A stretch of 64,000 nucleotides of DNA from Thiomicrorhabdus chilensis DSM 12352. Lineage in GTDB: Bacteria; Pseudomonadota; Gammaproteobacteria; Thiomicrospirales; Thiomicrospiraceae. Positions within the stretch are counted from its first letter, which is position 1; every line of letters begins with the position of its first letter. The notes beneath the pieces are model-generated. The model ran no database searches. It saw nothing but the letters and a program-made list of their open reading frames with translations, and had not been told where the DNA came from. Shown piece after piece: positions 1-25,861 of the stretch. The stretch is taken from assembly GCF_000483485.1 (NCBI RefSeq), contig NZ_KI519609.1:1641460-1705459 (forward strand), in the 5' to 3' direction. The position numbers and the translations under genes were made by a program.

Positions 1-2041
1 CGGAACCTAGGGCTACAATCAATGGATAAATAGATTTTTCATTTATGTACCCATTAGAAGTTAATGGTTCTGTGCCATAAACTTGTTCATAAGACGATTG
101 CCGAATTTTGTTATTCTTATGCCCTGGATTTGAGACCTTACGTGGGATATATAAGCAGTTACCAATGCTATAGACCTCGTAAGCTTCACTTCCTTTATCA
201 CGAAACCCAAGACGTACCTTTGATTCCATTTTTTTCTTAGAAAAAGTCCCTTTCATCAACCCTTTTCTAATTTCATCTCGGATATTTCTTGAAATATCTA
301 GTTCAAGGTCACAGTATTCATAAGCTTCATTTGCAGCATTTCCAATAAAAATTTGGGTTATTTGACCGCCCCTTTCAATAAAGATAAACGAAATACCATT
401 GTTTTTATAAAGAGCATCGAGGCTTTGTTGTGTTTTCTCTTCAGCTTGTGCAAGAATATCAAGGAAATCATCAACGTTATCAGAAAGTTCGAAGTCTTCA
501 ATAAAGTCAATAAACCTATCTCCAAAACGATTAACACCTATTTGCCCAAAGGTGTTGATTTCTACTAGGCTAATATTCTCACCTTTAACCAGGAATGAAG
601 CTAAGGCTCCAAAAAAATTGAACCTTTTAGCGTTTTCACTCTGCTTAACTCTGCGACAAGAATAATAATGAACATTGAAGTCATTATCTAAGCTCACATT
701 TTGAATACTTGAAGAAATGGGGGCTTTCTTGCCAAGAAGCTCTCGCTTTTGAATTACCTCAAATAGAGTCCGCTTGAATACCTCTTTGCTAGGGTTATTG
801 ATATCCCCCTTCAAAAAAAGGGTTTCATAAAAAACTGACTGCATAGGGCTAAACGAGTTATTGATAATACTGTTTAAACGAATCTGTCCATAAGTGTCCA
901 AGTTCTCATTTCTTGAACTTGATATCCAAGGTTCTTCTGATGTGAACTGCGTTATATAAATATCCGCAAGTTCTGGAGACTTACTAACTGTTAAAACAAC
1001 ATCTACATCGTCAGACAACCTCTCCACGGATAACTTTTGAAGTGCTTCAAGTGCTACTTGTTCATCAAATGACTCAAGTTCGTAAAGGCTATCATCAAAA
1101 TAGATAGCAAAATTTTGCGTATTAGAAAGTGATAACCCACCAAAATTTTTCGAGATGTATCCAAATGAGTCATTTTCAGGGTTTGTATATACGGAATACG
1201 AATTCTGTATTTCTGGTCTTATGAATTCTATATTGCACTCTTCTAAAAGATTCTCTAGATGTTTTGACCAATAATATTCATGCAGAACCCTAGTGTTAGC
1301 CTGTTCATCAATGTATTTTTCAGCCTCGCCTTCATCAGTTTGCTTGGTCCTATGCTGAATGTATGGGAAGTTTGGCTTTTTTAATGTACTTTTTCTTAAA
1401 CAATCATAATCAAAAATGTATATACCTTGTTTATAGGCAATAACTCCTTGGCTATCCTTTGGGAGATATCTCTTTGGACTAACTACACTTAAGTTAACCT
1501 CATTGGGTCGCAGAGTGCTTCGTTGAACACTCACAGAGAAAATATGGTCTTGGTCGGAAAAAGAATATGCAAATGACTGACGACCCAGAGTCAGTTCAAT
1601 ATCATTTTCAAGTTCAAGCTTTTCAGTTAAAACAGGTTCAAAACCTTTAAATGCTAAACATAATCGAATAAGTGATAGCGTAAACCATGAAATCTCTTCC
1701 GTAGAACTGAAAGCCTTTTGATAAAGGTCTCTTAACTCAATATCAAATGAAAGCTTATTTTCATTCCCAAAAACTAGGCAAACTCCAAAGTATGTATCCT
1801 TGTTTTTAAAAGATGCTATACCTTTAATGTTCTTTTTTTTCTCATATGATGGATTATTTGAAGATAAACGAGAATTCACATCTTCTACTAGAGCCTTATA
1901 TGCTATTTCAGGCTTATCAGCTTTAGTCATGCATGGAATAAGGGTCATATTTTCATACTGTTTGGTTTTATCAATCAACCATTCAATTAACTGCTCATTT
2001 ACACGACTACAGTCTTTTATTGCCAGAGAATTAAGCTTCAT
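1..2041 (-). CDS. Unrecognised protein, partner of the helicase (3' end beyond window)
   Basis: Reading the minus strand from ATG at 2041 gives about 680 uninterrupted codons that run off the left edge, so the C-terminus is missing. The start overlaps the end of the upstream helicase gene by 11 bases (ATGAAGCTTAA), with a GGAGG-type ribosome site just before it, so the two are very likely translationally coupled. The protein begins MKLNSLAIKDCSRVNEQLIE. It has no signal peptide or membrane segment that I can see and is rich in acidic and aromatic residues. Late segments such as NGISFIFIERGGQITQIFIG look like beta-hairpins, but I do not recognise a family or a catalytic motif. The tight pairing with a helicase-nuclease inside a defence island suggests a subunit of the same system. 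That is inference from context only. Confidence 0.75.
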   Translation of the reverse strand, partial: MKLNSLAIKDCSRVNEQLIEWLIDKTKQYENMTLIPCMTKADKPEIAYKALVEDVNSRLSSNNPSYEKKKNIKGIASFKNKDTYFGVCLVFGNENKLSFDIELRDLYQKAFSSTEEISWFTLSLIRLCLAFKGFEPVLTEKLELENDIELTLGRQSFAYSFSDQDHIFSVSVQRSTLRPNEVNLSVVSPKRYLPKDSQGVIAYKQGIYIFDYDCLRKSTLKKPNFPYIQHRTKQTDEGEAEKYIDEQANTRVLHEYYWSKHLENLLEECNIEFIRPEIQNSYSVYTNPENDSFGYISKNFGGLSLSNTQNFAIYFDDSLYELESFDEQVALEALQKLSVERLSDDVDVVLTVSKSPELADIYITQFTSEEPWISSSRNENLDTYGQIRLNSIINNSFSPMQSVFYETLFLKGDINNPSKEVFKRTLFEVIQKRELLGKKAPISSSIQNVSLDNDFNVHYYSCRRVKQSENAKRFNFFGALASFLVKGENISLVEINTFGQIGVNRFGDRFIDFIEDFELSDNVDDFLDILAQAEEKTQQSLDALYKNNGISFIFIERGGQITQIFIGNAANEAYEYCDLELDISRNIRDEIRKGLMKGTFSKKKMESKVRLGFRDKGSEAYEVYSIGNCLYIPRKVSNPGHKNNKIRQSSYEQVYGTEPLTSNGYINEKSIYPLIVALGS

Positions 2042-5000
2042 AATTAGCCTCCTTTTCTTCATGTTCAAGAACCCTTAGCAGGTCCAATGACAATGCCTTT
2101 ACAGATGAGTTAAGAGACAAAGTAAAGACTCCATTTTCATGACGTTTCATTTGAGGAACCGCATTCTCATTCACTCTTGTGTTCAGAATGACATACTTAA
2201 CTGTATAGCCCGGTAAGCTCTCTTTAATCGTTTCAAACTTCGACTCTGATGACTCGAATAGCCTCTGGTTTAAACCGATTGAAGGATTGATACCAAAATA
2301 CTCAGAATTAGATAAGCTTTTAGCATCAATAGCGAGTACAACATTTTCTTTAACGATATAAAAATCAGCTAATTCATAAATACTATTTAATGTTTTTGAC
2401 TGAATAGAAGATAATTCACGGACATCTATAGAAGCCAAAACCAAAGTTCTAATAACTCTACTTACAACTAATTCACCTAAGTTCCCAATCAAATCAAATA
2501 GAGCCCATGGCTGAACAAATGTATAAAGGCCATTTTCATTAGAAGAGAGAGCGTTGGTAACACTTTGACCATTTTCACTTAAAGCGTTCACAAGCTCTGA
2601 ATGGTTTTCAAGGTAATTAACAACATCCACTTCAAAGCCATTGTTATCAAAGAAAAAACTTGTCTGATTATTGTTAATGTGAGTCTCTCTAATACGATAC
2701 GAATCTATCGGGATATTTTTTTGAACCACAATCAAATCAATAAAAGCTTTAAAACGAAGCTGCTGCCTTTTAGGAAGTTTATGCAAGGCCACATTCAAAC
2801 CTTCCAAATAAGCTTTTATTCCATGGGTCCAGCAAACTGGGCTGCGGTAAGCCTTGTAGAACTCAACAAACGCTAAAACTGTTTGCGTTTCAGTACCAGA
2901 ACGATAACTCGCCAACTTGCTAAGAAGCGTTGATTTACAGTCTTCGAAAACTTCTAGCTCTGGAGATAACTGTTTTTTAGACGTGAGAGGTTCATTATTC
3001 TTAAGACTTAAATAACCATTAGACAACCTTGAATTGACTAAAGACATACAGTTGATTTGTTGATGAATTTTCTCATCATTCTGATGTTGAAAAATAGCCT
3101 CAAATCCTTTGTTAAAAATCTCATCGACTTCATTACATAGATATATTTCTTGCTCTTGCCTTGCATTAGTCCTTTCTACCCTTCCTATGCCCTGCATCAG
3201 CATAGAAATCAGTGAAATTCTATGTTGTTGTTCAAAGAACTTCTGCATTACAGGGTCAGTTTCAGCAGTATTCAAGTCAATTTCAGTATTATAAGTTGCA
3301 TGTTCATTTTGAAGTACATTTTGCCTAGAGTATTCCTCTAACATATATATGTATTTCTGAGCACTCAAAAAAAACCTTTTCTCTGCTGACTGCTTATTGA
3401 GAGAGTTCGTTATCGGAGGCTTTATAGAACTATAAAATGGAGGGGCACAAACATATAACGCATCTAAATCCCTTTTCTTAGCTTGTAAAACTCTACTTTC
3501 TTTTATATTTGAATCGTTAAAAAAGTCTGCTTGCTTTTTCTCTTCACTATTTCTTGAAGACTTGAGTTGTGGATGCTTAAAACCATCAACAATCAAGTTT
3601 AGCCCCCTAGCAGCAGATTGGTAGGCACTAACAATACAAACTGAGTTTCCATGGCCAGAAGATAGAATTAGCTCCATAGGGTTGAAGCCCGGATCTTGTG
3701 CTTGCTGATACACCCTAGAAGGGTAAGGCAATTTCAAAAGCTCTTTTAATTTATAGCTAACTGAGTTTGGATTAGAGTTCGCCTCCTTTAAAAGTTTGAC
3801 TAATTTCTTTTCCAATGACGCCGAGTAAAAAACAATAAGAAGTGGTAATGCCTTAGATGAATTACTGTAACGATTTGCAGACTTTTCTTTCAAAATTACA
3901 AGCCCATAACCTGCACTAATTTCTTCTGCATCCCCTGCCGAACCAAATAATATTTCGAACGAATAAACCTTATCGCCAATAAAAATAGCTTTATCTCTTA
4001 AAGCACCTGAAATAGCTGACAATGCAAAGTTATGCGTTTGTGCTAATGCTAGAGAAAACCTTGGTTTATTTTCATTTAAAGAGCTTCTTTGAGTATTTTC
4101 AATTGCCGAAAATACATTTCTGAATTCAGTTTTTTTATGACGGTTAAAGCGCCCTTTTATAAACTTTCCAACCAGTACTGTATCGCTACCAAGCTTCTCT
4201 TCTTCTTTAGCTTTTATATACGTCATACTTAAGACTTTATCTGCTAGTTCAAAAGAGCCATCAAAGGATTTGTTCTTAATAATTTTCTTCTGGGCTCGCT
4301 CATCTTGCTTCAACTTTGTAAGAGCAAAATCATCATCAGTCATATCCTGATAAACAACCTTTGCTTCTTTACACAGGATAGAAAGCGACCCAGTTGAAAA
4401 GGCTGAGATATGTGCATTGTGAAAACCACCAGTAGCACTCATTAAAAATACTTTATTGCGTTTTAAAGGAGCATTAACCAAAGATACAATGAATCTCTCT
4501 GGCGACATCCTTCTCATATAGACGGGAAATGAGACACTATTTACACCACCACAAGGAGACAACTGATATCGTTCATGCTTGCTTTGCACAATGCCGTAAA
4601 TGGTGTGTCCTCGCCTAAAGGCATAATCGCTATCAATTAATGTCTTTTGATGACATTGATTGGAATGAATCCCATCTTCAAGGATTTCATCAAACTCTCG
4701 GCCATCAGAAAAAGCCTTAATAAACTTCTCCCTACTGACATTACGAACCATCCTTAGCAAGTCTTTAGAAGTAGCAGTATGCAGTTCATCTTCTAAAGAA
4801 TTCCTTTTATCAATATTGAACGGAACACTGACACCTGACAAACTTTTTACACTTTTTTCTAAAGCCTCCCAGTCATTACCAAGAATAGATTCCTCTACAA
4901 GATTAATCTCCTTCTCTAACCCCTCAAGACTACCCTGCTCTTTACTAAAATGGCGCAGATGTAAATATGTTTCAGTAATTAATAGAAAGAAGTAATAAAG

Positions 5001-6503
5001 AGGTACTGTTTTGAAGTTTGCATACTTCTGGAGACTATCACTCCTCACAATCCGGAAAGAGCTAGGCATTATTACAATGTAATAATCATCTAAATGTCGG
5101 CTGGGAGTGAACCCAAAAAATTCTCCCCCAAAAGCACTTGTAGTATTAAAGACTTCACTATCAACTTTACTTTCTACAGTACAGTATGGAGCATTTAAAG
5201 ACCCTGCCCCTAAGTCAGATAGCTTTTCAAAAGTCTCTTCTGAATCCAAGTCATTAGCTTCAGACACAGCTTTAAAGAGACTATTTCTAATTTTTAGGCA
5301 ACGTTCTTTTGCGATAATTCTAGGAATAGAGTCATCTGTTACATGATTATCTAAAAAAGGAAGAAGCCGTTGTCCGGAGTCATCATAAAGTGACTTTAAG
5401 TTTTTATATGACTTGTCACACAAGACATCCCCCATTTCTTTGAACAAAGAACCGATAGACTGAAGCAAATTAAAATCACGAAAGTTTTCATCTAGACTAT
5501 CTTTTATAACTTCTTTAGCTGCATCCGACTCATCTAAGAAAAAGGTAAAATCAGCCATGAAAATTGAAGATTTAATGTCGTCTTCAGCCTCTTCATGCTC
5601 CAATGACATTTGTGCTAGTTCATCAATACTTCTAATGTCCTTGGTCCAGTTTAATCGCCCATTCTTTAGTAGTCGTGGCTTGAAAAAATAGTGTTTTGTC
5701 ATCAATTTTGCCGTTGTCATCCCCAATAGGAAAAACTTGGAACTTGATACTTGAACATGAAAAAAAGGAAAGAAAGAGGCCGTAATCGCTCGAAACTGCT
5801 CATAGGATTTTGGATGTTTTGACCTAAACACCACCTCTAGCAAATCTGAAAATGTCTTATTTTTGTACGAGTCTTCACATAATTTTGTTAAAGTGCCAGA
5901 TAGAGTTTTTGCCAGGTTACGAATACGTTCTTTTTTACTCGCCTCTTCCTGTTCTCGATAAATATTAATAACTTCTTCATCACCATTAATCTCGCCCTGC
6001 TTCTCATCAATTAAATAACTTAAAGCTCTGGCTTGTGATTCAATTATTTCTAAACGTTTAAACTGTTCATCAAGACCATAACTGTTGTCTAATTTTTTAA
6101 TTATCTCTGTGATACTGCTTTTTAATGTTTTAAATAAAGTGTTTGTCGAATTTCCAGCTACAAAGAAGAGGTCCTTGACGATGTCTAAAACATTACCTTC
6201 TACTTCCATATTGGATAAGGCAATAGCAGAAACTGGCCTAACCTTTATTACTTCACATCCGTAATCACCTAATTCCTTAACAATTTTGGCATCAAATTGA
6301 ATTTGGTTATGTTGCGGTGCAGTAAAAATATAAATTTCATTCGCACTCTGACTATTAATTTTCGATTTGACATCATCGAGAACAGCCACTTGAGCAGAGT
6401 AACTTTTTCCTAACCCTGTTCCTGATGTAATTGATTTAACAAAGCCATTTACTGTATCTGCATATGCAAACGGATAGAGTGGTGCAAGGCTTATTTGAGC
6501 CAT
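2031..6503 (-). CDS. Large SF2 helicase fused to a PD-(D/E)xK-like nuclease (1490 aa)
   Basis: The start is ATG at 6503, preceded by AGGAGA seven bases upstream; a TTG at 6527 is open but less likely. Helicase motifs appear in order: a P-loop SGTGLGKSYS near residue 30, a possible Walker B LDESD near residue 330, SATGG (motif III-like) in the middle, AYQSAARGLNL (motif V-like), and QGIGRVERT (motif VI-like, QxxGRxxR). Near the C-terminus GELVVSRVI, ELADFYI and AIDAKS match the spacing of E...D...DxK in PD-(D/E)xK nucleases. This suggests an ATP-driven translocase that also cuts nucleic acid. The gap between the P-loop and the DExx box is unusually long, so a large insertion sits inside RecA domain 1. 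The gene is coupled to the downstream unknown gene. I cannot assign it to a named system (not a typical HsdR, DruE or DISARM helicase). Confidence 0.75.
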   Translation of the reverse strand: MAQISLAPLYPFAYADTVNGFVKSITSGTGLGKSYSAQVAVLDDVKSKINSQSANEIYIFTAPQHNQIQFDAKIVKELGDYGCEVIKVRPVSAIALSNMEVEGNVLDIVKDLFFVAGNSTNTLFKTLKSSITEIIKKLDNSYGLDEQFKRLEIIESQARALSYLIDEKQGEINGDEEVINIYREQEEASKKERIRNLAKTLSGTLTKLCEDSYKNKTFSDLLEVVFRSKHPKSYEQFRAITASFFPFFHVQVSSSKFFLLGMTTAKLMTKHYFFKPRLLKNGRLNWTKDIRSIDELAQMSLEHEEAEDDIKSSIFMADFTFFLDESDAAKEVIKDSLDENFRDFNLLQSIGSLFKEMGDVLCDKSYKNLKSLYDDSGQRLLPFLDNHVTDDSIPRIIAKERCLKIRNSLFKAVSEANDLDSEETFEKLSDLGAGSLNAPYCTVESKVDSEVFNTTSAFGGEFFGFTPSRHLDDYYIVIMPSSFRIVRSDSLQKYANFKTVPLYYFFLLITETYLHLRHFSKEQGSLEGLEKEINLVEESILGNDWEALEKSVKSLSGVSVPFNIDKRNSLEDELHTATSKDLLRMVRNVSREKFIKAFSDGREFDEILEDGIHSNQCHQKTLIDSDYAFRRGHTIYGIVQSKHERYQLSPCGGVNSVSFPVYMRRMSPERFIVSLVNAPLKRNKVFLMSATGGFHNAHISAFSTGSLSILCKEAKVVYQDMTDDDFALTKLKQDERAQKKIIKNKSFDGSFELADKVLSMTYIKAKEEEKLGSDTVLVGKFIKGRFNRHKKTEFRNVFSAIENTQRSSLNENKPRFSLALAQTHNFALSAISGALRDKAIFIGDKVYSFEILFGSAGDAEEISAGYGLVILKEKSANRYSNSSKALPLLIVFYSASLEKKLVKLLKEANSNPNSVSYKLKELLKLPYPSRVYQQAQDPGFNPMELILSSGHGNSVCIVSAYQSAARGLNLIVDGFKHPQLKSSRNSEEKKQADFFNDSNIKESRVLQAKKRDLDALYVCAPPFYSSIKPPITNSLNKQSAEKRFFLSAQKYIYMLEEYSRQNVLQNEHATYNTEIDLNTAETDPVMQKFFEQQHRISLISMLMQGIGRVERTNARQEQEIYLCNEVDEIFNKGFEAIFQHQNDEKIHQQINCMSLVNSRLSNGYLSLKNNEPLTSKKQLSPELEVFEDCKSTLLSKLASYRSGTETQTVLAFVEFYKAYRSPVCWTHGIKAYLEGLNVALHKLPKRQQLRFKAFIDLIVVQKNIPIDSYRIRETHINNNQTSFFFDNNGFEVDVVNYLENHSELVNALSENGQSVTNALSSNENGLYTFVQPWALFDLIGNLGELVVSRVIRTLVLASIDVRELSSIQSKTLNSIYELADFYIVKENVVLAIDAKSLSNSEYFGINPSIGLNQRLFESSESKFETIKESLPGYTVKYVILNTRVNENAVPQMKRHENGVFTLSLNSSVKALSLDLLRVLEHEEKEANYEA

Positions 6504-6789: not shown

Positions 6790-7452
6790 TTAGAAATTAA
6801 ACACGTCATCTCGTTTAGACTCTATAAAGATTACGAAATCATACCCATACGGAAACCTTGCAACACATCGTCTTGTTCTAAGATGAAATTCCATTTGGTC
6901 CGGCATGCAATAACCGACTTCCAATGGAAAATTGGAACAAACTCCGTCGACAACATCGCTTGCTTCAGTCCTATCACCCTCCGCATCGTAGCCAACCGCG
7001 GAAAAACTCTCAATAAATGGTTTTTTGAACTCTATAAACCCATCTTCCCCCTGATTCCCACCCCAAAAATCAGCATCAAGAATGTCATACAGGTTCCGTT
7101 TCTGATATTGTTTAACCATATCTTTTAGTATGTCTTGATTTGCGTCAATCTGTTTATCAGGATACGGATTTTCTCTAACTTGTAAAAATCGGTAAATCAA
7201 ATTCCCACTTAGAACGTTTTGCCAAGCCATTGCTGTCAGCACTAAATCTTCAAATGCTATAAGGTGTTCTCTATAGGCTTGACAGTAAACATCCATAAAC
7301 CTCATTTCTATTTGTTGTCTATCATCAAGGTTGATATAAATTATCGGATTATTTTTTTGGAAAATATCAACAGCTTTAACTGCCATCGTTCTAAACTTAA
7401 AATCCCTCATCTTTTTGTTGATGGATTTTCTTAGAATTTGTTTATTAGGCAT
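6790..7452 (-). CDS. Unknown 220-residue protein
   Basis: The start ATG at 7452 has GGAG about eight bases upstream. The product starts MPNKQILRKSINKKMRDFKF (basic N-terminus), continues with a likely helical middle, and ends with an aromatic-rich segment containing ADFWGGNQGEDGF and RRCVARFPYGYDFVIFIESK. I see no membrane segment, nucleotide-binding loop or metal-binding cluster, and I do not recognise the family. It lies between the helicase pair and the phosphoesterase operon on the same strand, 51 bases after the broken phosphoesterase, and could be the last member of that operon or a separate unit. Confidence 0.6.
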   Translation of the reverse strand: MPNKQILRKSINKKMRDFKFRTMAVKAVDIFQKNNPIIYINLDDRQQIEMRFMDVYCQAYREHLIAFEDLVLTAMAWQNVLSGNLIYRFLQVRENPYPDKQIDANQDILKDMVKQYQKRNLYDILDADFWGGNQGEDGFIEFKKPFIESFSAVGYDAEGDRTEASDVVDGVCSNFPLEVGYCMPDQMEFHLRTRRCVARFPYGYDFVIFIESKRDDVFNF

Positions 7453-8994: not shown

Positions 8995-9012
8995 TTACAT
9001 AATCCAAACTTC

Positions 9013-10397: not shown

Positions 10398-10408
10398 ATT
10401 GAAGCCCT

Positions 10409-12117: not shown

Positions 12118-12150
12118 ATTATTTCCGCATATTTTTAAATAGACATCTAA

Positions 12151-12180
12151 ATGATAAACAAACTAAGCAAAAAACGCCAA
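12151..12180 (-). promoter_or_regulatory. Candidate sigma-70 promoter of phosphoesterase operon
   Basis: On the minus strand TTGGCG (12180-12175), an 18-base spacer and TATCAT (12156-12151) lie about 35 bases before the ATG at 12117. The gap 12118-12271 is very AT-rich and shared by two divergent operons. Confidence 0.45.
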
Positions 12181-12232
12181 TAAATTTTGCATCATTTTTT
12201 TTCTGTTCTTTTTCTTTATATTCCGGTTTTTT

Positions 12233-12892: not shown

Positions 12893-12900
12893 GAACCACC

Positions 12901-14418
12901 ATGGCACATACACCAATTAACCAAGATGAAATCAACAAAGCCGTTTGGGGCGCGTGCGATACTTTCCGCGGCACAGTAGACCCATCCATTTACAAAGACT
13001 TTGTTCTTACCATGCTGTTCTTAAAATATATCTCTGATGTGCATCGCGATAAACACGAAGAACTATCAAAGCAGTTCGATGGCAATGAACAGATGATTAC
13101 CGCCATGATGGCAAGTCAGTCTTTCAAAATTCCAGCATGCGCTACCTTTTGGGATTTATATGAAAAACGTCATGAAGCAGGCAACGGAACCCGTATTGAT
13201 ACCGCACTACATGCCATCGAAGAAGCCAATGGCAGCAAACTTAAAAACGTTTTCCAAGACATTAGCTTTAACACAGACAAGCTTGGAGATGAAAAACAAA
13301 AAAATGAAATCCTGCGCCACCTATTAGAAGACTTTGGTAAAGAAAAACTCGATCTTCGTCCGAGCCGCGTAGGCACATTGGATGTCATTGGTAACGCTTA
13401 CGAATTCTTAATTAAAAACTTTGCCACAGGCTCAGGAAAATCAGCCGGTGAATTCTATACACCTCCAGAGGTGTCAGACCTACTTGCAGTTCTTTTAGAC
13501 CCACAAGAAAATGACCAAATCTGTGACCCCGCCTGTGGTTCCGGTTCGCTATTAATGAAGTGCGGTAAGCAAATTCAAAAGAAATTTAACGGTTCAAAGC
13601 AATACGCTCTATTTGGGCAAGAAGCGATTGGTTCAACTTGGTCACTGGCCAAAATGAATATGTTCCTGCATGGCGAAGACAACCACCGCATTGAATGGGG
13701 TGACACCATTCGCAACCCAAAACTACAAGACAGCAACGGCGGTCTATTGCACTTTGATGTAGTTACCGCCAACCCACCATTCTCGTTAGATAAGTGGGGC
13801 CATGAAAACGCAGCAGATGATACTTGGGGACGTTTTGAGCGTGGTGTACCACCGAAAACCAAAGGCGACTATGCGTTTATCTTGCATATGATTGAAACCC
13901 TTAAACCGCAAACAGGTCGCATGGGCGTGGTTGTGCCGCATGGCGTGCTATTTCGCGGCGCGGCAGAAGGCAAAATCCGCACCAAACTTATTGAAGAAAA
14001 CCTACTCGATGCGGTGATAGGTTTACCTGAAAAACTATTTTTCGGCACTGGGATTCCAGCGGCAATTTTGATTTTCAAAAAACACAAAACCACCAATGAT
14101 GTCCTGTTTATTGATGCCAGTCGAGAGTTCCAGTCAGGCAAAAACCAAAACAAACTCACCGAAGAGCACCTCACCAAAATCGTTGATACCTACGGTAATC
14201 GTGAAACGGTGGATAAATACGCCTACCTTGCCACCCTCGATGAAATCAAAGAAAACGACTACAACCTCAATATCCCGCGCTATGTCGATACCTTTGAAGA
14301 AGAAGCCGAAATTGACCTAATGGCGGTGCGCTCCGAGCGTCTTGCCCTGCAAAACCAATTGTCAGAGCTAGAAACCCAAATGGAAGGCTATCTAAAGGAG
14401 TTGGGTTATGACTCGTGA
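12901..14418 (+). CDS. hsdM: Type I RM methyltransferase subunit HsdM (505 aa)
   Basis: It transfers methyl groups from S-adenosylmethionine to adenine N6 in the HsdM2S complex. The N-terminal HsdM helical domain is followed by the SAM-binding motif DPACGSGSLL near residue 206 and the catalytic TANPPFSLDKW near residue 283 (NPPF type). Length matches the family. AGGAACCACC precedes the ATG. It is followed by hsdS with an 11-base overlap. Its codon use looks less AT-rich than the gajAB genes further down the operon. Confidence 0.95.
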   Translation: MAHTPINQDEINKAVWGACDTFRGTVDPSIYKDFVLTMLFLKYISDVHRDKHEELSKQFDGNEQMITAMMASQSFKIPACATFWDLYEKRHEAGNGTRIDTALHAIEEANGSKLKNVFQDISFNTDKLGDEKQKNEILRHLLEDFGKEKLDLRPSRVGTLDVIGNAYEFLIKNFATGSGKSAGEFYTPPEVSDLLAVLLDPQENDQICDPACGSGSLLMKCGKQIQKKFNGSKQYALFGQEAIGSTWSLAKMNMFLHGEDNHRIEWGDTIRNPKLQDSNGGLLHFDVVTANPPFSLDKWGHENAADDTWGRFERGVPPKTKGDYAFILHMIETLKPQTGRMGVVVPHGVLFRGAAEGKIRTKLIEENLLDAVIGLPEKLFFGTGIPAAILIFKKHKTTNDVLFIDASREFQSGKNQNKLTEEHLTKIVDTYGNRETVDKYAYLATLDEIKENDYNLNIPRYVDTFEEEAEIDLMAVRSERLALQNQLSELETQMEGYLKELGYDS

Positions 14419-15619
14419 TTCTTATTCTCAGCTTGAATTAATGCAAGCTAGGGTAAAAAGCGTACCTAGCAATTGGCTTTTCTCTTATGTTGGCAAAGTG
14501 TTTGATATAAAAAACACATTTAGAAAACCTATCAGCGATGAAATTCGTCAAAAGAATCCAGGTCAATACCCATATTACGGTCCAACTAAAATACAAGGCT
14601 TCATTGATACATATGAACAAGATGGTGAATTTGCCCTAATTGGAGAGGACGGCGACCATTTTTTAAAGTTCAGAAATCTGCCTATGACTCAACTTATAGA
14701 GGGCAAGTGTACCGTTAATAATCATGCTCATATTGTTGCTGGAACCAATAGTGCGACAAGGGAATGGTTTTATTACTACTTTATGCATAGGGACATTTTT
14801 AGCTTCTTGACACGACAAGGTGCTGGTCGCTTTAAATTAAATAAAGCAGCACTTGAACATATACCTTTACTTGTCCCACCTCTCCCCGAACAAAAGAAAA
14901 TCGCGGAGATTTTATCGACTTGGGATAAGGCGATTACCACCACCGAGCAACTGCTGGCCAATAGCCAACAGCACAAAAAAGCCCTTATGCAACAACTACT
15001 CACAGGCAAAAAACGCCTCCACGACCACACAGGCCAACCGTTTACTGGGGAGTGGCATAATTGCCATATCGGAAAATTGTTGAAAGAAAGCCGAATACCG
15101 TCAAGCTTGAATAACCCTGATAATCGTTTAACTGTTCGGTTAAATTTAAAAGGAATTGAAAAACGGGAGTTTCGTGGAACTGAGTCAATTGATGCGACAG
15201 CTCATTTTATTCGAAAATCTGGTCAATTTATTTATGGCAAACAAAATATCCACAAAGGCTCATTTGGGTTAATTCCAAACGAATTTGATGGTTTTGAAAC
15301 ATCTCAAGATTTACCAGCTTTTGATTTCATTGGAATATGTGAACCAAGCTGGTTCTTTTACTACGTTTCTCAAAGCTGGTTCCATCAATCGCTTGAAAAC
15401 CGTATGAGCGGAACAGGCTCAAAACGCTTAAGTCCTTCGGAGTTTTTTAAAGTCAGAGTTTTGCTTCCTGAACTTAAAGAACAACAAAAAATCGCAGCCG
15501 TCTTAACCGCCGCCGACCAAGAAATCGACACCCTAAAACAAAAACTCGACCATCTAAAACAAGAGAAAAAAGCCCTCATGCAACAGCTTTTAACCGGTAA
15601 GAAAAGAGTCTTAAGTTAA
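14408..15619 (+). CDS. hsdS: Type I RM specificity subunit HsdS (403 aa)
   Basis: It has two target-recognition domains and two conserved arms. The arms are recognisable as near-repeats: LPEQKKIAEILSTWDKAITT near residue 158 and LKEQQKIAAVLTAADQEIDT near residue 358, each followed by QQLLTGKKR. It directs HsdM and HsdR to a bipartite DNA target, which cannot be predicted by eye. The start overlaps the end of hsdM by 11 bases. gajA follows after 20 bases. Length is normal for a complete HsdS. Confidence 0.93.
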   Translation: MTRDSYSQLELMQARVKSVPSNWLFSYVGKVFDIKNTFRKPISDEIRQKNPGQYPYYGPTKIQGFIDTYEQDGEFALIGEDGDHFLKFRNLPMTQLIEGKCTVNNHAHIVAGTNSATREWFYYYFMHRDIFSFLTRQGAGRFKLNKAALEHIPLLVPPLPEQKKIAEILSTWDKAITTTEQLLANSQQHKKALMQQLLTGKKRLHDHTGQPFTGEWHNCHIGKLLKESRIPSSLNNPDNRLTVRLNLKGIEKREFRGTESIDATAHFIRKSGQFIYGKQNIHKGSFGLIPNEFDGFETSQDLPAFDFIGICEPSWFFYYVSQSWFHQSLENRMSGTGSKRLSPSEFFKVRVLLPELKEQQKIAAVLTAADQEIDTLKQKLDHLKQEKKALMQQLLTGKKRVLS

Positions 15620-15639
15620 TTAAACTCAAAAGGAACTTC

Positions 15640-17433
15640 ATGCAAATTGTTAAGCTTGATATCAATAACTTTAGAGGAATAAAGTCAGCCTCTATTTTAT
15701 TACCTAAACACGGCGTATTGATTGGAGACAACAATACTGGGAAAACGACAATTCTAGAAGCTCTTGACCTAGTACTTGGGCCAGATAGGCTAAACAGATA
15801 CCCTCCTATTGACGAACATGACTTCTATTCTGGAATCTATTTAAATGAAGAGCCTAGCGAAGGAGGAGGTGATTCCCCAAAGATTGAAATCCATACCGTT
15901 ATAACCGAACTCAGTACAGAGCAGAGAATCGAGTTTGGTAATTATATCGAATTCTGGGATTCAACGTCCTCACAGCTATATGACATACCTGACCCTGAAG
16001 GGGTAGATGCTACACATATTAAGCCAGCTATAAGAGTTACTTTCCATGGTTGGTATGACCCAGAAGAAGACGATTTTCAAGCTAAAACTTTCTTTTCTAG
16101 GTCTATTACAGAAGATGACCCTCCAAGACAGTTTACAAAAAAGCACAAGCAAATTTGCGGCTTCCTTTACCTTAGAACAGTGAGAACAGGAAGAAGAGCA
16201 CTTAGCTTAGAAAAAGGCAGCCTTTTAGATATTATCCTGCGATTAAATGAGGTAAGGCCTCAAATGTGGGAAAAAACTCTTAAAGAGGTATCTACTATAT
16301 CCATTGCTGAAGACCCTGAATTAGGTATATCTTCAATTCTCGAAAGCATCAATTCTTCTCTAAAAAAATATGTTCCTAAAGAGTGGGGAGTTGAGCCTCA
16401 ACTCAAACTTTCAAACTTAACGAGAGAGAATCTTAGGCAAGTTATAACCGCTTTTATTGCTTCTGGCGACGGAACTCATATAGCCCCCTATTATCGTCAA
16501 GGAACAGGGACAATAAATATGCTGGTTTTAGCAATGCTATCGCAAATCGCCGAAGCAAAGCAAAACGTTATTTTTGCAATGGAAGAGCCCGAAACTGCAA
16601 TTCCTCCTTATGCTCAAAAAAGAATTATTCATGAAGTTCAAAGCTTGTCCTCCCAAACTCTATTCACATCTCACTCCCCTTTCGTTTTAGAAGAGTTTGA
16701 AATAAAAGATACATTAGTGCTCACTAGAGGAAGTGAAGGAACCTTAGAACGAAAAAGTATTACTCTTCCATCTGGGGTTAAGCTAAAAAGCTATAGGCAG
16801 AATTTTAGAACTAGATTTTGTGAAGGCTTATTAGCTCGAAAAGTCCTTGTTGCAGAAGGGGCTACAGAGGCATCAGCATTTCCAGCTGCCTGTAGAAGGC
16901 TCTATGAATTAGAACCGGATAAATATCTACCTCTTGAGGCCTTAGGCATCAGTATTATTGATGCTGGAGGAGAAAAACATATTCCAAATATTGCATCTAT
17001 TTATAAAGGGCTTGATAAGCAAACATTCTCAATTTGCGATGCTCAAACAGAAGAGAATCAACAACGAATTGAAGAACAAGTCGAATTAAACTTGATGCAC
17101 GAGGAAAAGGGTTTTGAAAAACTAGTCGTAAATGGAACTACTGAAGATGCATTAAATGCATATGCAGACTCTATAGATTGGCCACCCCATTTAAGGGAGA
17201 AATTCTTCCCATTAAACAATGAAAATACCAGAACAGCCATTTTAGAGTTCTTTAAGAGTACAAAAGCAGAAGGTACAGTAGCTGATTTTTTATCAGACCT
17301 ACCTATTGAAGCCATCCCAGAATGGATCAAATCTGCCGCAGAAGAATTGAAAACTAAATGTCTTAAAGAAATTGAACCAATAACTGAGGAAGATGCTTCT
17401 CCTTCTTCAGTTCTAGAAGTGAGTTTTTTGTGA
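15640..17433 (+). CDS. gajA: Gabija protein GajA, OLD-family ATPase/TOPRIM nuclease (597 aa)
   Basis: The N-terminal ABC-type ATPase has Walker A GDNNTGKTTILEAL near residue 30, a signature-like YRQGTGTINML, Walker B VIFAMEEPE and the switch TSHSP. The C-terminal TOPRIM domain has VLVAEGATEASAF near residue 400 and an acidic SICDAQTEE. This is the class 2 OLD architecture; class 2 OLD genes paired with a UvrD-like helicase are the Gabija anti-phage system. GajA nicks or cuts DNA and its ATPase domain senses nucleotide state. Length fits known GajA. It overlaps gajB by 4 bases and is embedded between hsdS and hsdR. Confidence 0.9.
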   Translation: MQIVKLDINNFRGIKSASILLPKHGVLIGDNNTGKTTILEALDLVLGPDRLNRYPPIDEHDFYSGIYLNEEPSEGGGDSPKIEIHTVITELSTEQRIEFGNYIEFWDSTSSQLYDIPDPEGVDATHIKPAIRVTFHGWYDPEEDDFQAKTFFSRSITEDDPPRQFTKKHKQICGFLYLRTVRTGRRALSLEKGSLLDIILRLNEVRPQMWEKTLKEVSTISIAEDPELGISSILESINSSLKKYVPKEWGVEPQLKLSNLTRENLRQVITAFIASGDGTHIAPYYRQGTGTINMLVLAMLSQIAEAKQNVIFAMEEPETAIPPYAQKRIIHEVQSLSSQTLFTSHSPFVLEEFEIKDTLVLTRGSEGTLERKSITLPSGVKLKSYRQNFRTRFCEGLLARKVLVAEGATEASAFPAACRRLYELEPDKYLPLEALGISIIDAGGEKHIPNIASIYKGLDKQTFSICDAQTEENQQRIEEQVELNLMHEEKGFEKLVVNGTTEDALNAYADSIDWPPHLREKFFPLNNENTRTAILEFFKSTKAEGTVADFLSDLPIEAIPEWIKSAAEELKTKCLKEIEPITEEDASPSSVLEVSFL

Positions 17434-19247
17434 ACTTAACTGCTGAACAGAACCTTGTAATGTCATCTAGTAATCACCTACTTGTTACTGGAGGTCCTGG
17501 CTCCGGAAAAACGACTATATCCATTTTAAAAGCTGCTCATATCTCAGAACACGAGTTAAATAAAGGTCAAAAAGTTCTTTTTTTAAGCTTTGCCAGGGCA
17601 ACCATCTCTCGTGTTATCGAAGCCATTGAGCATGAACAGAGTATTTCTCCTGAAATAAAAAAAAGAATTGACGTTGATACCTACCATGCTTTTTTCTGGA
17701 GAGTGTTGAAAACCCACGGTTATCTTTTAGGGTTACCAAGAAAACTACAAATCTTAGCTCCACATGAGGAAGCTGTAGCTTTATCGGAAATACGCTCAAG
17801 ATATGCCGGGAAAAAGCTTTCTCAGCAAGATAAAATTGAAAAGCGAGACCTTGAAGAAAGAGAAAGGTACCGCTTGGCAAGAGAAGAAGGAAAAATCTGT
17901 TTTGATTTTTTTGCCAAATTTACTTTAGATATTATTCAACCTAGCTCACAAATAACTGAACTAATATCTGAAGCATTTCCAGTTATTATCGTTGATGAGT
18001 TTCAAGACACTAACCAAACACAATGGAACGTAATAAAAGCGCTTGGTTCAGCCTGTCGAATTATCTCTCTTGCAGATCAAGAGCAAAGAATCTTCGAGTG
18101 GATTGGAGCAGACCCCAAGCGTTTAGACCATTTTAAAAGCGCGTTTCAACCCGATGTAGTTGATCTAAGTGATGTCAATCACAGAAGTGCAGGAACAGAC
18201 ATAGCAGTTTTTGGAAATGATGTTCTAACTGGAAACTACAGAGAAGAAGCCTATAAAGGAGTTAGTATAGAGTTATTTGATGCATTGAAAGCACCCGCTT
18301 TCACTAAACTTATAACCACAGTATACACTGCTAGAAAACGGTTAATTGCTTCAGGCAAGCCAGATTGGTCTTTAGCAGTTTTAGTTCCAACCAAAAAAAT
18401 GACTAGACTTGTATCTGATGCATTTCGGAGTCCTCCTAGCTCACTAACACCAATAAGCCACAATGCAGTTATTGATGTTTCTGGAGCGATACTTGCAGCT
18501 GAAACCATAGCTCATTTGCTAAATTCTTTTCAAAGCAAAAAAGAGCACTTCTTTATATTTGTTGAGTTAGTTTGTAATTTTTTTGAAGGCAAAGGCGGTG
18601 AAAAACCTAGTCTTTCAAACCTGAAAGAGGCACAAAAAATTAGAGAATCATACTCTCTGATGCAAGAGAAACTAAAATCAGGAAAAAAATTATCTAAGGG
18701 CAGTGTCATATTCAAAATTGTACAGACATATCAACAAGTATTAATGATTGAGTATACTGGTGACCCTGAAAAAGACTGGCTAACAGTTCGTCAAACCCTT
18801 GAAAATGGATCATGTACCCGCCTCAAAAAATTAGCTATTGAAGCTAAAAATGTTCGCATATTAGATAGGGGTACAGAACTTCGATCGCGGCTTGCTTTAA
18901 GCTGGAACAACAGCCATTATCTCGATGCATTGAACATAGTTAAAGACGCCTTTACACAGGAACACTTCGCAACTAAATCTAAACCGGAGTCAGGGGTTGT
19001 TGTTATGAATATGCACAAGTCAAAAGGAAAACAGTTTGATGAAGTTATTATCTTTGAAGGCTGGCCAACGATTGTAAGAAGGAAAATAGTCGCTAATAAT
19101 GACCGAATTGTGCGACTTAACGATAAAGAAAATATTGACACTCAGTCAAGACAAAACTTGAGAGTTAGTATTACAAGAGGTAAACAACACACGACTCTGC
19201 TGACACCAAAAGTTGATCCATGTGTAATTTTAACCCAAAGACCTTAG
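17430..19247 (+). CDS. gajB: Gabija protein GajB, UvrD-like SF1A helicase (605 aa)
   Basis: It starts at GTG, overlapping the gajA stop (GTGA). Motif I is LLVTGGPGSGKTT at residues 14-26, motif II VIIVDEFQDTN near residue 187, then LADQEQRIFEWIGA, the late motif MNMHKSKGKQFDEV and motif VI LRVSITRGK. It is a 3'-5' SF1A-type NTPase and partner of GajA. At 605 residues it is longer than the roughly 500 residues I associate with GajB; the extra length lies mainly between motifs III and V. It ends 8 bases before hsdR. Confidence 0.88.
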   Translation: MNLTAEQNLVMSSSNHLLVTGGPGSGKTTISILKAAHISEHELNKGQKVLFLSFARATISRVIEAIEHEQSISPEIKKRIDVDTYHAFFWRVLKTHGYLLGLPRKLQILAPHEEAVALSEIRSRYAGKKLSQQDKIEKRDLEERERYRLAREEGKICFDFFAKFTLDIIQPSSQITELISEAFPVIIVDEFQDTNQTQWNVIKALGSACRIISLADQEQRIFEWIGADPKRLDHFKSAFQPDVVDLSDVNHRSAGTDIAVFGNDVLTGNYREEAYKGVSIELFDALKAPAFTKLITTVYTARKRLIASGKPDWSLAVLVPTKKMTRLVSDAFRSPPSSLTPISHNAVIDVSGAILAAETIAHLLNSFQSKKEHFFIFVELVCNFFEGKGGEKPSLSNLKEAQKIRESYSLMQEKLKSGKKLSKGSVIFKIVQTYQQVLMIEYTGDPEKDWLTVRQTLENGSCTRLKKLAIEAKNVRILDRGTELRSRLALSWNNSHYLDALNIVKDAFTQEHFATKSKPESGVVVMNMHKSKGKQFDEVIIFEGWPTIVRRKIVANNDRIVRLNDKENIDTQSRQNLRVSITRGKQHTTLLTPKVDPCVILTQRP

Positions 19248-19255
19248 AGAGAACC

Positions 19256-22200
19256 ATGTACAAGCTAATCGCAAAATTCCACGAAGAAGTCAGTGCTAAG
19301 ATTCCAGCTTTAACTTTGCTGGCAAATCTTGACTATCAATACCTATCGCCAGAACAAGCGAATGATATGCGTGATAGTTTGTCCTCAGTGGTGTTGACGG
19401 ATATTTTGCGTGAAACGATGAAAGACCAATCTTTTGAGTTCCAAGGAAAGTCACACCCTTTATCCGAAGCTGCGATAGATAAAATAGTTCAAGAGTTAGC
19501 TACCCCAGCAATGAATGAGGGGTTACGTGCTGCCAATGAAAAGCTCTATAACGCTCTAACCTATGGAGTTGGTATTACCGAGTTTATTGATGGTAAAAAA
19601 GTGAGTCCAACAATTCAAATAATCGATTGGGAAAACCCTGATAATAATGAATACCATTTTACGGAAGAGTTTGAGGTTTTAAATGCTCATGGCACAGGCA
19701 AACGTATTCCTGACATTGTTTGCTTTGTTAATGGCTTACCTTGGGTAGTGATTGAAGCCAAGCGCCCAGATTCTTCTCATACTGGTAAACCTACCGTTGA
19801 AGAAGGTATTTCTCAAAACATTCGTAACCAAAAAGTGGATGAAATACCCCACTTGTTTGCCTATTCTCAATTACTTCTCTCCATTAATGGTCATCAAGGG
19901 CTTTATGGCACTTGCGGCACGCCTGCGAAGTTCTGGGCAAAGTGGAAAGAAGAAGACATTTCAGAAAACACTTTTTCTAAAATTAAAAACCTAGCATTAA
20001 AGCCTGAACAACTTGCAGCCATTTTTGAACACAGACCTCAATATACCAAACAAGACTATCTTTCTTTAATTAGCGGTGGCGATTTAATTGTCACCGACCA
20101 AGACCGATTATTAATCTCTTTACTTAAACCTGAACGTCTTTTAGAAATGACTCGCCTATTTGTGTTGTTCGATACTAAGGTGGGTAAAGTGGTTGCTCGT
20201 TATCAACAGGTATTTGGCATTAAAGCCTTGGTGGAGCGCATTACCACCTTTGATGATAAAGGAGCTCGAAACGGTGGTGTAATTTGGCATACCACAGGGT
20301 CTGGTAAATCTTTTACCATGGTGTTTTTAGCCAAAGCACTCATCTGGTTAAAAGAGTTGGCTAAATGCCGTGTGGTCGTGGTCACTGACCGTGTGGATTT
20401 GGAAGACCAGTTAGCCCGAACTTTTGCGACAGGCGGTGCGCTATCGGATAAAGATAAAAAATCCGCCATGGCCACCACAGGTAAACGTCTTGCAGAACAA
20501 ATAGGTAAAGGTAACGAACGTATTATTTTTTCTATCATCAATAAGTTCGGCACCGCCATTAATCTACCAGAATGCTATAACGATAGTCCTGACATGATTG
20601 TACTTGTTGATGAGGGTCACCGCAGCCAAAATGGTGAAAACAATGTACGCATGAAACAGGCTTTACCTAAAGCCGCCTACATTGCGTTTACTGGAACGCC
20701 TTTACTAAAAGATGATAAAACCGAAAATAAGTTTGGCAAAATCATTCACTCTTACACCATGCAACAGGCCGTTGAAGACCAAACGGTCACTCCCCTACTT
20801 TATGAAGAACGAATTCCTGAACTGAGTACTAATGACAGTGCTATTGATGCCTGGTTTGAACGCATTACCTCTGACTTAAGTAGTAAACAAAAAAGTGACT
20901 TAAAGAAAAAGTTCTCACAAAAAGGCCAAATCTATCAAACCGAAGGTCGTCTTGAACTGATTGCTTATGATATTTCAGACCACTTTCAGAACTTTAAAGA
21001 TTTGGGGTTAAAAGGTCAGCTAGCTTGTGACTCTAAAGCCTCTGCTATTCGCTATAAACAATTACTCGACAAGATAGGTAAAGTCTCCTCAGTGGTCGCC
21101 ATGTCTCCTCCTGACACCCGTGAAGGTCATATAGACATTGATAGTGAAAGCACCGATTTAGTTCAGAACTGGTGGAAAGAAAACGTTGGCTCACAAGATG
21201 AAAAAGCCTACACCAAATATATTATCAGTGAGTTTGCTAAAGAATCTGGGCCAGATATCATGATTGTCGTAGATAAACTCCTAACTGGATTTGATGAGCC
21301 AAAAAACACGGTTCTCTACATCGACAAACCTCTTAAACAACATAACCTGATTCAAGCCATTGCACGCGTTAACCGCCTACATAGTAAAAAGCAGTTTGGT
21401 TATCTAATTGATTATCGTGGGATTCTAAAAGAACTCGACACCACGATTGAACAGTACCAAGATTTAGCAAAACGTACTCAAGGTGGATTTGATATTGATG
21501 ACCTGAAAGGCCTATATCATCAAATGGAAACGGAGTATAAAAAGTTACCACGCTTGTATTCAGAGCTTTGGGCTATTTTTGATGATGTTAAAAACAAACA
21601 AGATGGTCCGGCTTTAAGAGCCTTCTTAGCACCTAAGATTGAAAATATTGAAGGTAACTTGACCGATACCAACCTGAAAAAACGTGATGATTTCTACGCC
21701 GCTTTAACACAGTATACAAACTGCTTAAAAGTAGCTCTTCAATCATCTAGTTATTTTGAAGATAAGAGTTTTGATAATAAGCGACAGCTCTATAAAGACA
21801 CTTTAAAAATGATGGTTCAACTTCGTCAACAAGTTCGTCAAGATGCAGAAGAAACGGTTGCTTATGATGAGTATGCAGATGACATTAAAGCCTTGCTTGA
21901 TAAGCACATTGGCGGTGTAAATATTGAAGAGCCTGAAGGCGCTTATTTAGTTGGTGAAATGGGCGTTGACTCAAAACCACATGAAATGAGTGATGAAGAG
22001 GCTCGAAATAAAAAAGATGTGATTACGGGCCGTGTTACCAAACGCATTGAACAAGACTTAGCCGATGACCCTTATGCCCAAGAGTACTTTTCTAAATTGC
22101 TAAAAGAAGCCATTGAGCAAGCTAAAGAAATGTTTGATGCTCCTGTTAAACAATATCTATTGTTTGCGGACTTTGAAGAAAAGGTTAAAAATCGAGAAGT

Positions 22201-22525
22201 TGAAGGATTGCCAGCTGACAAACTCAACGGGCTTGACCCAAAAAACAAACGCCATGTCCAAGCTTACTTTGGCCTATTCCTAAAACAGTTTGATGGTGCA
22301 TTACCTTTTACCAATGACTCTTGTTTTGATTATGCTGTGCAAATAGACGAAATTGTTAGAAAAGCAGTGTCTGAATACTCTATTAATCCCCAAGAAATCG
22401 AGAATCAAATCACGACTGGTTTGCTTCCACTCTTGTTCCAAGATATTGGTATAGAAAAAGCACAAGCAATTATCTCGGAAGTCATTAAAATCACCCGTCT
22501 AGGTTTGTCAGGTTATAAATCTTAA
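19256..22525 (+). CDS. hsdR: Type I restriction endonuclease/translocase subunit HsdR (1089 aa)
   Basis: I choose ATG at 19256 (MYKLIAKFHEE), with AGAGAG before it and located after the gajB stop; an open frame starting at 19220 would overlap gajB. The nuclease domain is RIPDIVCFVNGLPWVVIEAK (PD...ExK) near residue 165. The SF2 motor has HTTGSGKSFTMVF, VLVDEGHRSQ (DEGH), AFTGTPL and QAIARVNRL. The C-terminal helical domain binds the methylase core. It pumps DNA and cuts at collision. Stop and the next start overlap as TAATG. Confidence 0.95.
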   Translation: MYKLIAKFHEEVSAKIPALTLLANLDYQYLSPEQANDMRDSLSSVVLTDILRETMKDQSFEFQGKSHPLSEAAIDKIVQELATPAMNEGLRAANEKLYNALTYGVGITEFIDGKKVSPTIQIIDWENPDNNEYHFTEEFEVLNAHGTGKRIPDIVCFVNGLPWVVIEAKRPDSSHTGKPTVEEGISQNIRNQKVDEIPHLFAYSQLLLSINGHQGLYGTCGTPAKFWAKWKEEDISENTFSKIKNLALKPEQLAAIFEHRPQYTKQDYLSLISGGDLIVTDQDRLLISLLKPERLLEMTRLFVLFDTKVGKVVARYQQVFGIKALVERITTFDDKGARNGGVIWHTTGSGKSFTMVFLAKALIWLKELAKCRVVVVTDRVDLEDQLARTFATGGALSDKDKKSAMATTGKRLAEQIGKGNERIIFSIINKFGTAINLPECYNDSPDMIVLVDEGHRSQNGENNVRMKQALPKAAYIAFTGTPLLKDDKTENKFGKIIHSYTMQQAVEDQTVTPLLYEERIPELSTNDSAIDAWFERITSDLSSKQKSDLKKKFSQKGQIYQTEGRLELIAYDISDHFQNFKDLGLKGQLACDSKASAIRYKQLLDKIGKVSSVVAMSPPDTREGHIDIDSESTDLVQNWWKENVGSQDEKAYTKYIISEFAKESGPDIMIVVDKLLTGFDEPKNTVLYIDKPLKQHNLIQAIARVNRLHSKKQFGYLIDYRGILKELDTTIEQYQDLAKRTQGGFDIDDLKGLYHQMETEYKKLPRLYSELWAIFDDVKNKQDGPALRAFLAPKIENIEGNLTDTNLKKRDDFYAALTQYTNCLKVALQSSSYFEDKSFDNKRQLYKDTLKMMVQLRQQVRQDAEETVAYDEYADDIKALLDKHIGGVNIEEPEGAYLVGEMGVDSKPHEMSDEEARNKKDVITGRVTKRIEQDLADDPYAQEYFSKLLKEAIEQAKEMFDAPVKQYLLFADFEEKVKNREVEGLPADKLNGLDPKNKRHVQAYFGLFLKQFDGALPFTNDSCFDYAVQIDEIVRKAVSEYSINPQEIENQITTGLLPLLFQDIGIEKAQAIISEVIKITRLGLSGYKS

Positions 22526-25719: not shown

Positions 25720-25784
25720 GGCAAAAAAGCAAGAAATACTTAAAAACTATTGAGTGCGTAACATACTGAAATATAAAAGAAAAA

Positions 25785-25861
25785 TGGGGCGAATGACGGG
25801 GATCGAACCCGCGACAACAGGAATCACAATCCTGGGCTCTACCAACTGAGCTACATCCGCC
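25785..25861 (-). tRNA. tRNA-His (GTG)
   Basis: A full cloverleaf with an extra G at -1 (GGCGGATG acceptor start), anticodon GTG in loop TTGTGAT, T arm GGTTCGATCCCC and an encoded CCA. It is the last of three tRNA genes transcribed on this strand. Its 3' end faces the AT-rich island, the usual target geometry for a tyrosine-recombinase element. Confidence 0.97.

What the first reader, a model, noticed from the sequence alone, without database searches (positions are those of the whole stretch)
1..6503. Coupled helicase-nuclease and unknown large protein: candidate undescribed defence pair
The two genes overlap by 11 bases. One is a 1490-residue SF2 motor with a long insertion in its first RecA domain and a C-terminal E...D...DxK nuclease-like module. 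The other is an at least 680-residue protein that matches no family I know. They share an island with type I RM, Gabija and a phosphoesterase operon. I could not place the pair in Hachiman, Druantia, DISARM, BREX or other named systems from memory.
Basis: partly seen in the sequence, partly recalled or inferred. Interest (0 to 1): 0.8.

Follow-up and report, generated by a model that had tools for sequence, protein, structure and literature searches.

The report
Divergent ApsAB-type anti-plasmid gene pair
Two coupled genes in a mobile defence island encode a DNA motor with a cutting domain and a probable guide-binding Argonaute-like partner, a very divergent relative of the E. coli ApsAB system that removes plasmids, so the pair is probably a plasmid-clearing defence and not a new kind of system.

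Summary
In detail: a 1490-aa SF2 helicase with a C-terminal PD-(D/E)XK nuclease overlaps by 11 bases a 706-aa partner whose last 26 residues lie outside the window. The pair is not undescribed. The helicase is an ApsA-family protein (HMM built without it: 169 bits, E 2e-50; hhalign P 9e-36); ApsAB is an anti-plasmid system of E. coli (Zongo 2024). An ApsB-type partner follows the helicase in 27 of 28 related loci; the 28th is cut by its contig end. The window's partner itself is not significant to an ApsB HMM (E 3.2). Only its MID (guide-pocket) region matches by profile comparison (score 37.1; reached by 0 of 500 shuffles and 0 of 96 natural proteins). There it has R388 for the essential K413, S for G, and ends in D; 24 of 24 aligned partners keep K, G and terminal N. 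A confident AlphaFold model of the Amphritea ApsB matches DdmE best (Foldseek 1e-15; Z 14.7), then Argonautes, whereas the paper reported ApsB and DdmE models as different. The pair sits in a 46-kb tRNA-His island with type I RM and Gabija. No helicase match exists in 61 other genomes of the order; one congener keeps a partner remnant. Verdict: deep variant of a known kind.

The parts
2031..6503 (-). ApsA-type SF2 helicase-nuclease, 1490 aa
   Evidence: HMM of 25 relatives without the window gives 168.9 bits; hhalign P 8.5e-36 over 1164 columns
6402..6422 (-). Walker A GTGLGKS (residues 28-34)
   Evidence: aligns with GFGKS 218-222 of ApsA
5523..5534 (-). motif II DESD (residues 324-327)
   Evidence: aligns with DELH of ApsA
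4431..4439 (-). motif III SAT (residues 689-691)
3171..3194 (-). motif VI QGIGRVER (residues 1104-1111)
   Evidence: aligns with QAVGRVER of ApsA
2319..2474 (-). PD-(D/E)XK nuclease core E1344...D1380...D1393-A-K1395
   Evidence: invariant in the seven-helicase alignment; D1380, D1393 and K1395 align with D1420, D1433 and K1435 of ApsA
1..2041 (-). probable ApsB-type (Argonaute-like) partner; the last 26 residues and the stop lie outside the window (706 aa in all)
   Evidence: read from the genome; partner position kept in 27 of 28 related loci; identity by sequence only local
746..892 (-). MID-like guide-pocket motif Y384-x3-R388...Q401-S402...K432 of the partner
   Evidence: profile alignment puts it on Y409/K413/Q431G/K489 of ApsB; two of three MAFFT modes left a gap at the QG column
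12901..22525 (+). neighbouring defence genes in the same island: HsdM, HsdS, GajA, GajB, HsdR
   Evidence: PADLOC
25778..25832 (.). right copy of a 55-bp perfect direct repeat (probable att) overlapping tRNA-His; left copy at window coordinate -19904, beside a tyrosine integrase

Best explanation
The pair is a deeply divergent member of the ApsAB family of anti-plasmid systems. The 706-aa partner is an Argonaute-like protein that binds a guide by its 5' end in a MID pocket and finds matching plasmid DNA. It recruits the 1490-aa ApsA-type protein, which moves along the DNA by its SF2 motor and cuts with its PD-(D/E)XK domain, so that plasmids are lost. Shown here: ApsA homology with the catalytic motifs intact, gene coupling, island context. 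Inferred: that the partner is an ApsB homologue with an altered pocket (R for K, S for G, D at the end), that it uses guides, and that plasmids are its target. Shown only for E. coli ApsAB (paper): both proteins are needed, K221, E533 and ApsB K413 are essential, K1435 of the nuclease partly, eight phages were not restricted, and pSC101 and IncFII/IncFIB plasmids were not affected.
For: Helicase: HMM of 25 relatives built without the window scores it 168.9 bits, E 1.7e-50; best of 2000 shuffles 5.5 bits; hhalign P 8.5e-36 over 1164 columns; blastp E 6e-8 against an ApsA with the exact published residue numbers. Helicase and nuclease motifs kept. Partner ORF directly downstream in 27 of 28 related loci, the 28th cut by a contig end. 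Partner: MID region found in register by profile comparison, score 37.1, reached by 0 of 300 shuffles and 0 of 96 natural proteins and 0 of 200 block shuffles, best 33.6; the best hit still covers that region when each of five clades is dropped. An ApsB-type model has the Argonaute fold, DdmE first. Experiments on ApsAB: PMC11096173, sections 9, 11, 12, 25.
Against: The partner is not significant to the ApsB HMM (E 3.2; 17 of 2000 shuffles score higher), nor in my semi-global profile score (z 1.1), nor against four clade-level profiles; dropping clades weakens the hit to P 0.002-0.04. Two of three MAFFT modes did not place Q401 on the QG column. K413, whose change to alanine abolished activity in E. 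coli, is R388 here. The AlphaFold model of the window's partner failed (pLDDT 37). The helicase's place is unresolved: in the tree it falls between DdmD and the other ApsA (support 79/68), and grouping with the beta or the gamma ApsA is not rejected (p-AU 0.26, 0.15).
Confidence: 0.72

Rival explanations
1. The motor is ApsA-type but the partner is an unrelated or third-class targeting protein (neither ApsB nor DdmE), which would give the pair another trigger or target, perhaps phages.
For: Partner E 3.2 to the ApsB HMM, nothing against DdmE, no credible library hit. The motor family is already known to work with two partner classes without detectable sequence similarity (PMC11096173).
Against: Specific in-register match at the MID motif with shuffle and natural-protein controls; same place, overlap and similar length as ApsB genes.
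Confidence: 0.18
2. A degenerating ApsAB: the motor is intact but the partner's changed pocket and C-terminal residue reflect loss of function.
For: Among 25 aligned partners only the window departs from K, G and terminal N. Broken relatives exist: the helicase on E. coli plasmid pSTEC639_1, partly deleted copies in the paper, and a partner remnant in congener G025.
Against: Both reading frames are intact over 1490 and 706 codons; Y, Q and the last K of the pocket are kept and K to R is conservative. The 56-residue remnant in G025 also has D at the place of D706 (then one K and a stop), so the D is not peculiar to this copy.
Confidence: 0.1

Closest known systems
ApsAB (E. coli; Zongo et al. 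2024, PMC11096173)
   Same: Gene order and tight coupling; SF2 helicase with long insert before motif II plus C-terminal PD-(D/E)XK; partner of about 700 aa; MID-like Y, Q, K; genomic-island setting with other defence systems
   Different: 17-20% identity in the helicase and 11-17% in the partner over 25 and 24 relatives; the stretch of about 180-190 residues before the motor in E. coli ApsA and G747 is absent; K413 to R, QG to QS, terminal N to D; partner not found by the ApsB HMM
Betaproteobacterial ApsAB-like pairs (Acidovorax plasmid pACDW039_1, Variovorax, Cupriavidus; L032, L065, L074, L075)
   Same: Motor close to the N-terminus (Walker K41 in Acidovorax), LMSATGG motif III, downstream partner
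   Different: Helicase 17-19% identical; their four partners keep Y/K/QG/K/N; a window-plus-beta clade is neither supported nor rejected
DdmDE (Vibrio cholerae, Lactobacillus casei)
   Same: Same logic: helicase-nuclease plus Argonaute-like partner (PMC12409362, passages); ApsA profile matches three DdmD-like proteins (P 3.5e-13); the ApsB-type model's best fold match is DdmE
   Different: PADLOC's DdmD and DdmE models recognise L046 but not the window; window helicase to DdmD only P 0.0014; partner to DdmE none

Membership tests
ApsAB | ApsA-family SF2 helicase motifs (GxGKS, DExx, SAT, QxxGRVER) | tested here: met
ApsAB | C-terminal PD-(D/E)XK nuclease residues on ApsA | tested here: met
   D1380, D1393-A-K1395 align with D1420, D1433-V-K1435; also E1344
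ApsAB | ApsB-family gene directly downstream | tested here: inconclusive
   A 706-aa gene is there with an 11-base overlap, but it is not significant to the ApsB HMM (E 3.2); local profile match in the MID region only
ApsAB | MID-like motif Y-x3-K...QG...K | tested here: inconclusive
   Y384, R388, Q401-S402, K432: Y, Q and the last K kept, K413 replaced by R, G by S. The strict motif fails; the register rests on a weak alignment, and two of three MAFFT modes gap the QG column
ApsAB | Destabilises plasmids; both proteins needed | not testable with these tools
   shown for E. coli ApsAB only (PMC11096173)
DdmDE | DdmD and DdmE sequence models | tested here: not met
   no PADLOC hit up to E 1, although PDLC04130 and PDLC04131 recognise L046
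Argonaute fold (long pAgo-like) | Argonaute fold of the partner | tested here: inconclusive
   found for the Amphritea ApsB homologue; the window partner's own model is unusable (pLDDT 37)

The most novel reading that the evidence does not exclude
The window's partner belongs to a third class of guide-binding partner for the ApsA/DdmD motor family, beside ApsB and DdmE, with an arginine pocket and an acidic C-terminus that could mean another guide end or another target; and ApsB, DdmE and this class are all Argonaute-fold adaptors of one anti-plasmid superfamily.
Probability: 0.25. Interest if true: 0.6.

Novelty: new variant of a known kind. Interest (0 to 1): 0.42.

Why it matters
It extends the anti-plasmid ApsAB family to a lineage that the four annotation libraries searched here miss, offers a natural variant of the pocket residue found essential in E. 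coli, and together with the ApsB model supports joining ApsAB and DdmDE in one Argonaute-guided plasmid-clearing superfamily.

Tried and rejected
Searches with the helicase alone found no other member: genome contigs, viral contigs (with the alignment), plasmids at E 1e-3, phages, PDB sequences, 95 relatives, 369 class genomes. In 86 relatives it gave the G025 remnant (E 1.2e-9) and a G006 match (E 0.003) inside a 799-aa ORF that I take for chance (it looks like an EAL-domain protein from memory). Family profiles of both proteins had no PDB match up to E 10. Only a loose search of 398 phylum genomes (23 with a match at E up to 1, of which three large ORFs were followed) and a loose plasmid search (four records, two followed) opened the family.

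pPIWI-RE was considered from memory and dropped: no Pfam hit. DdmDE was considered next and is a relative, not the family. The AlphaFold model of the window's partner was not searched because of its low confidence. My semi-global profile score was uninformative for the partner (z 1.1; the best of 77 natural controls reached z 2.9). Four clade-level ApsB profiles did not find the partner. The hit in G281 (E 6.5e-4, ORF 820 aa) was not followed. WYL regulators lie divergently upstream in L029 and L031; the one ORF that I tested upstream of the window's pair (6790-7452) has no credible Pfam match, so regulators were not counted as part of the system.

Rows left out before a count: the motif table holds 24 partners besides the window; seven of the 27 partners (L063, L064, L066, L068, L070, L071, L073) are not in it, L068 and L070 being the same contigs as G747 and G701. 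The 24 include near-duplicates (such as L049 and L050). The alignment A3 holds 20 of the 27. The tree leaves out L056, L059 and L061.
Full report
What is there. The window lies at 1641460-1705459 of a 2.44-Mb, 99.99% complete genome. Its first 6.5 kb hold two genes on the minus strand. The first in reading order (2031-6503) encodes 1490 aa. The second starts at 2041, overlaps it by 11 bases, and runs 80 bases past the window's edge including its stop; read from the genome it is 706 aa. Neither protein, nor the 220-aa product upstream, has a credible hit in PADLOC 2.0, Pfam, PHROGs or NCBIfam, and neither of the two has one among PDB sequences.

Finding relatives. Direct searches with the helicase were empty. 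A search of 398 phylum genomes at E up to 1 gave, among 23 genomes with a match, three large ORFs (G747, with three collinear matches, G701 and G589), and a loose plasmid search gave an Acidovorax and an E. coli plasmid. In all five the helicase homologue is followed at once by a 678-747-aa partner; in the E. coli plasmid the helicase is broken into three ORFs. An alignment of seven helicases (A1) then found 28 loci in the public genome set. In 27 of 28 the partner lies directly downstream; in the 28th (L061) the contig ends inside the helicase. The same profile finds a match at E 1e-3 in 7 of 398 phylum genomes and 3 of 369 class genomes, own genome included in each, and in 1 of 62 genomes of the order, the window's own. 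Three of these genomes hold DdmD-like proteins: G723 and G735, of which G723's matches the PADLOC and PDB DdmD and DdmE, and, more weakly, G350.

Identity. In E. coli, 147 of 5426 complete genomes carry the pair or part of it, 141 of them over at least 80% of its length, all 152 places on chromosomes. In the four E. coli chromosomal loci that I opened both products are called hypothetical. Strain 15.TR.026_OXA has the residues at exactly the numbers published for ApsAB: GFGKS 218-222, DELH 532-535, SAT 823-825, QAVGRVER 1140-1147, D1420, DVK 1433-1435 in ApsA; Y409, K413, QG 431-432, K489, N743 in ApsB (paper PMC11096173: abstract, outline and sections 9, 11, 12, 25 read). ApsAB destabilises IncL, p15A, ColE1 and pMB1 plasmids but not pSC101 or IncFII/IncFIB, needs both proteins, loses activity in K221A, E533A and K413A, partly in K1435A, and did not restrict eight phages (same sections).

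The window's helicase is an ApsA-family protein. An HMM of 25 relatives without the window scores it 168.9 bits (E 1.7e-50) against 5.5 bits for the best of 2000 shuffles; hhalign gives P 8.5e-36 over 1164 columns. It is only 17-20% identical to any of them and lacks the 180-190 residues before the motor in E. coli ApsA and G747. In a 26-row tree it has an end branch of 2.12 changes per column. Its exact place is open: it sits beside DdmD at 79/68, and clades with the beta or the gamma ApsA are not rejected (p-AU 0.26 and 0.15). I therefore call it a third deep lineage or an intermediate; the paper reports intermediates that I could not compare, since supplements were closed.

The partner is the weak link. 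It does not score with the ApsB HMM (E 3.2, 17 of 2000 shuffles higher) or with DdmE. Profile comparison with 20 ApsB-type proteins finds one segment, residues 377-491, in register on the MID motif, score 37.1. None of 300 shuffles (best 26.9) or 96 natural proteins (best 25.9) or 200 block shuffles (best 33.6) reaches it. Dropping any one of five clades keeps the region but weakens it to P 0.002-0.04. In that register the window has Y384, R388, Q401-S402 and K432, although two of three MAFFT modes gap the QG column; the 24 other partners in the table all keep Y, K, QG, K and a C-terminal N, where the window ends in D. With position, overlap and length this makes ApsB homology probable, not shown. 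The alternative is a third partner class.

A trace in the genus. The partner as query found, in 1 of 85 other relatives, a 56-residue stretch of 46% identity to its C-terminal end (G025, L082:9323-9490), among transposase-like ORFs, with no significant helicase match in the 20 kb around it and no open frame for the rest. It too has D at the place of D706, followed by one K. So this partner lineage was once in another species of the genus, and the D is not peculiar to the window's copy.

Fold. The window partner's own model is unusable (pLDDT 37). The Amphritea ApsB homologue folds well with 20 sequences (pLDDT 81, pTM 0.81). Its best Foldseek matches in the PDB are two L. casei DdmE entries (E 1.1e-15 and 3.2e-15, TM about 0.5), then Argonautes; no V. 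cholerae DdmE is among the 50 rows shown. By VIA-align the first five rows are DdmE (Z 14.7 to 12.7; 9ezy, 5.8 A over 527 residues), then mostly Argonaute and Piwi proteins at Z 9-11, with one more DdmE entry (Z 10.6) among them. The paper found a loose likeness of ApsB to prokaryotic Argonautes but no typical PIWI and PAZ domains, and ApsB and DdmE models that differ. The solved structures now suggest that the two share the Argonaute fold along their length. I saw no paper that says so in searches, which cover open-licence PMC texts and of which 90 and 94 listed 15 of 123 and 10 of 24 papers. DdmE is described as a catalytically inactive long pAgo that uses DNA guides and recruits DdmD (PMC12409362, passages).

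Setting. The island runs from a 55-bp perfect direct repeat at window coordinate -19904 to its copy at 25778, which overlaps tRNA-His; a tyrosine integrase (Pfam E 3.7e-16) lies just inside the left copy; G+C is 34-42% in the bins inside and 43-54% outside, apart from 41% in the bin just left of the island and 44% in the one across its right edge. It carries type I RM, Gabija and phosphoesterase genes. Of the relatives' neighbours that I tested, Shango genes stand in L066, L052 and L074, a DrmD-like helicase in L062 and Gabija in L048; E. coli L034 has TerB, ATPase and helicase genes next to the pair.

Mechanism. I think the partner carries a guide and marks plasmid DNA, and the ApsA-type protein unwinds and cuts it. 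Motor and nuclease residues are shown; guide use and target are inferred from ApsAB and DdmDE.

Noticed in passing
window 25778-25832 and window coordinate -19904 (G000:C1:1621555): 55-bp perfect direct repeat flanking a 46-kb low-G+C island with a tyrosine integrase at the left end and tRNA-His at the right end.
   Followed up: partly
L082:9323-9490 (genome G025, same genus): Isolated 56-residue remnant of the partner's C-terminal end (46% identity) among transposase-like ORFs, without a helicase nearby.
   Followed up: partly
window 12272-12892: Short Methylase_S (HsdS-like) protein, 206 aa, directly upstream of hsdM: a possible alternative or remnant specificity half.
   Followed up: no
L002:3009-5831 (window coordinates about -6991 to -4169): 940-aa protein with two AAA modules and a peptidase M41 domain, PADLOC matches to part of IetA models (E 1e-29); a possible further defence gene of the island.
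   Followed up: no
window coordinates -13142 to -8508: 1544-aa protein in the island's left part, not analysed.
   Followed up: no
L032 (NZ_AP029020.1) 10216-16517: An intact ApsAB-like pair carried on a 365-kb Acidovorax plasmid: an anti-plasmid-type system on a plasmid.
   Followed up: no
L033 (CP061233.1) 8925-15859: ApsAB on the 1-Mb E. coli plasmid pSTEC639_1 with the helicase broken into three ORFs and the partner frame intact.
   Followed up: no
L029:11089-11961 and L031:11826-12776: Divergent WYL-domain regulators upstream of two ApsAB-like pairs.
   Followed up: partly
window 8089-12117: Run of calcineurin-like phosphoesterase genes (three of those tested match Metallophos) with a further copy just outside the window; role unknown.
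   Followed up: no
literature: PMC12904381: This review's text swaps the names DdmD and DdmE (passage seen).
   Followed up: no
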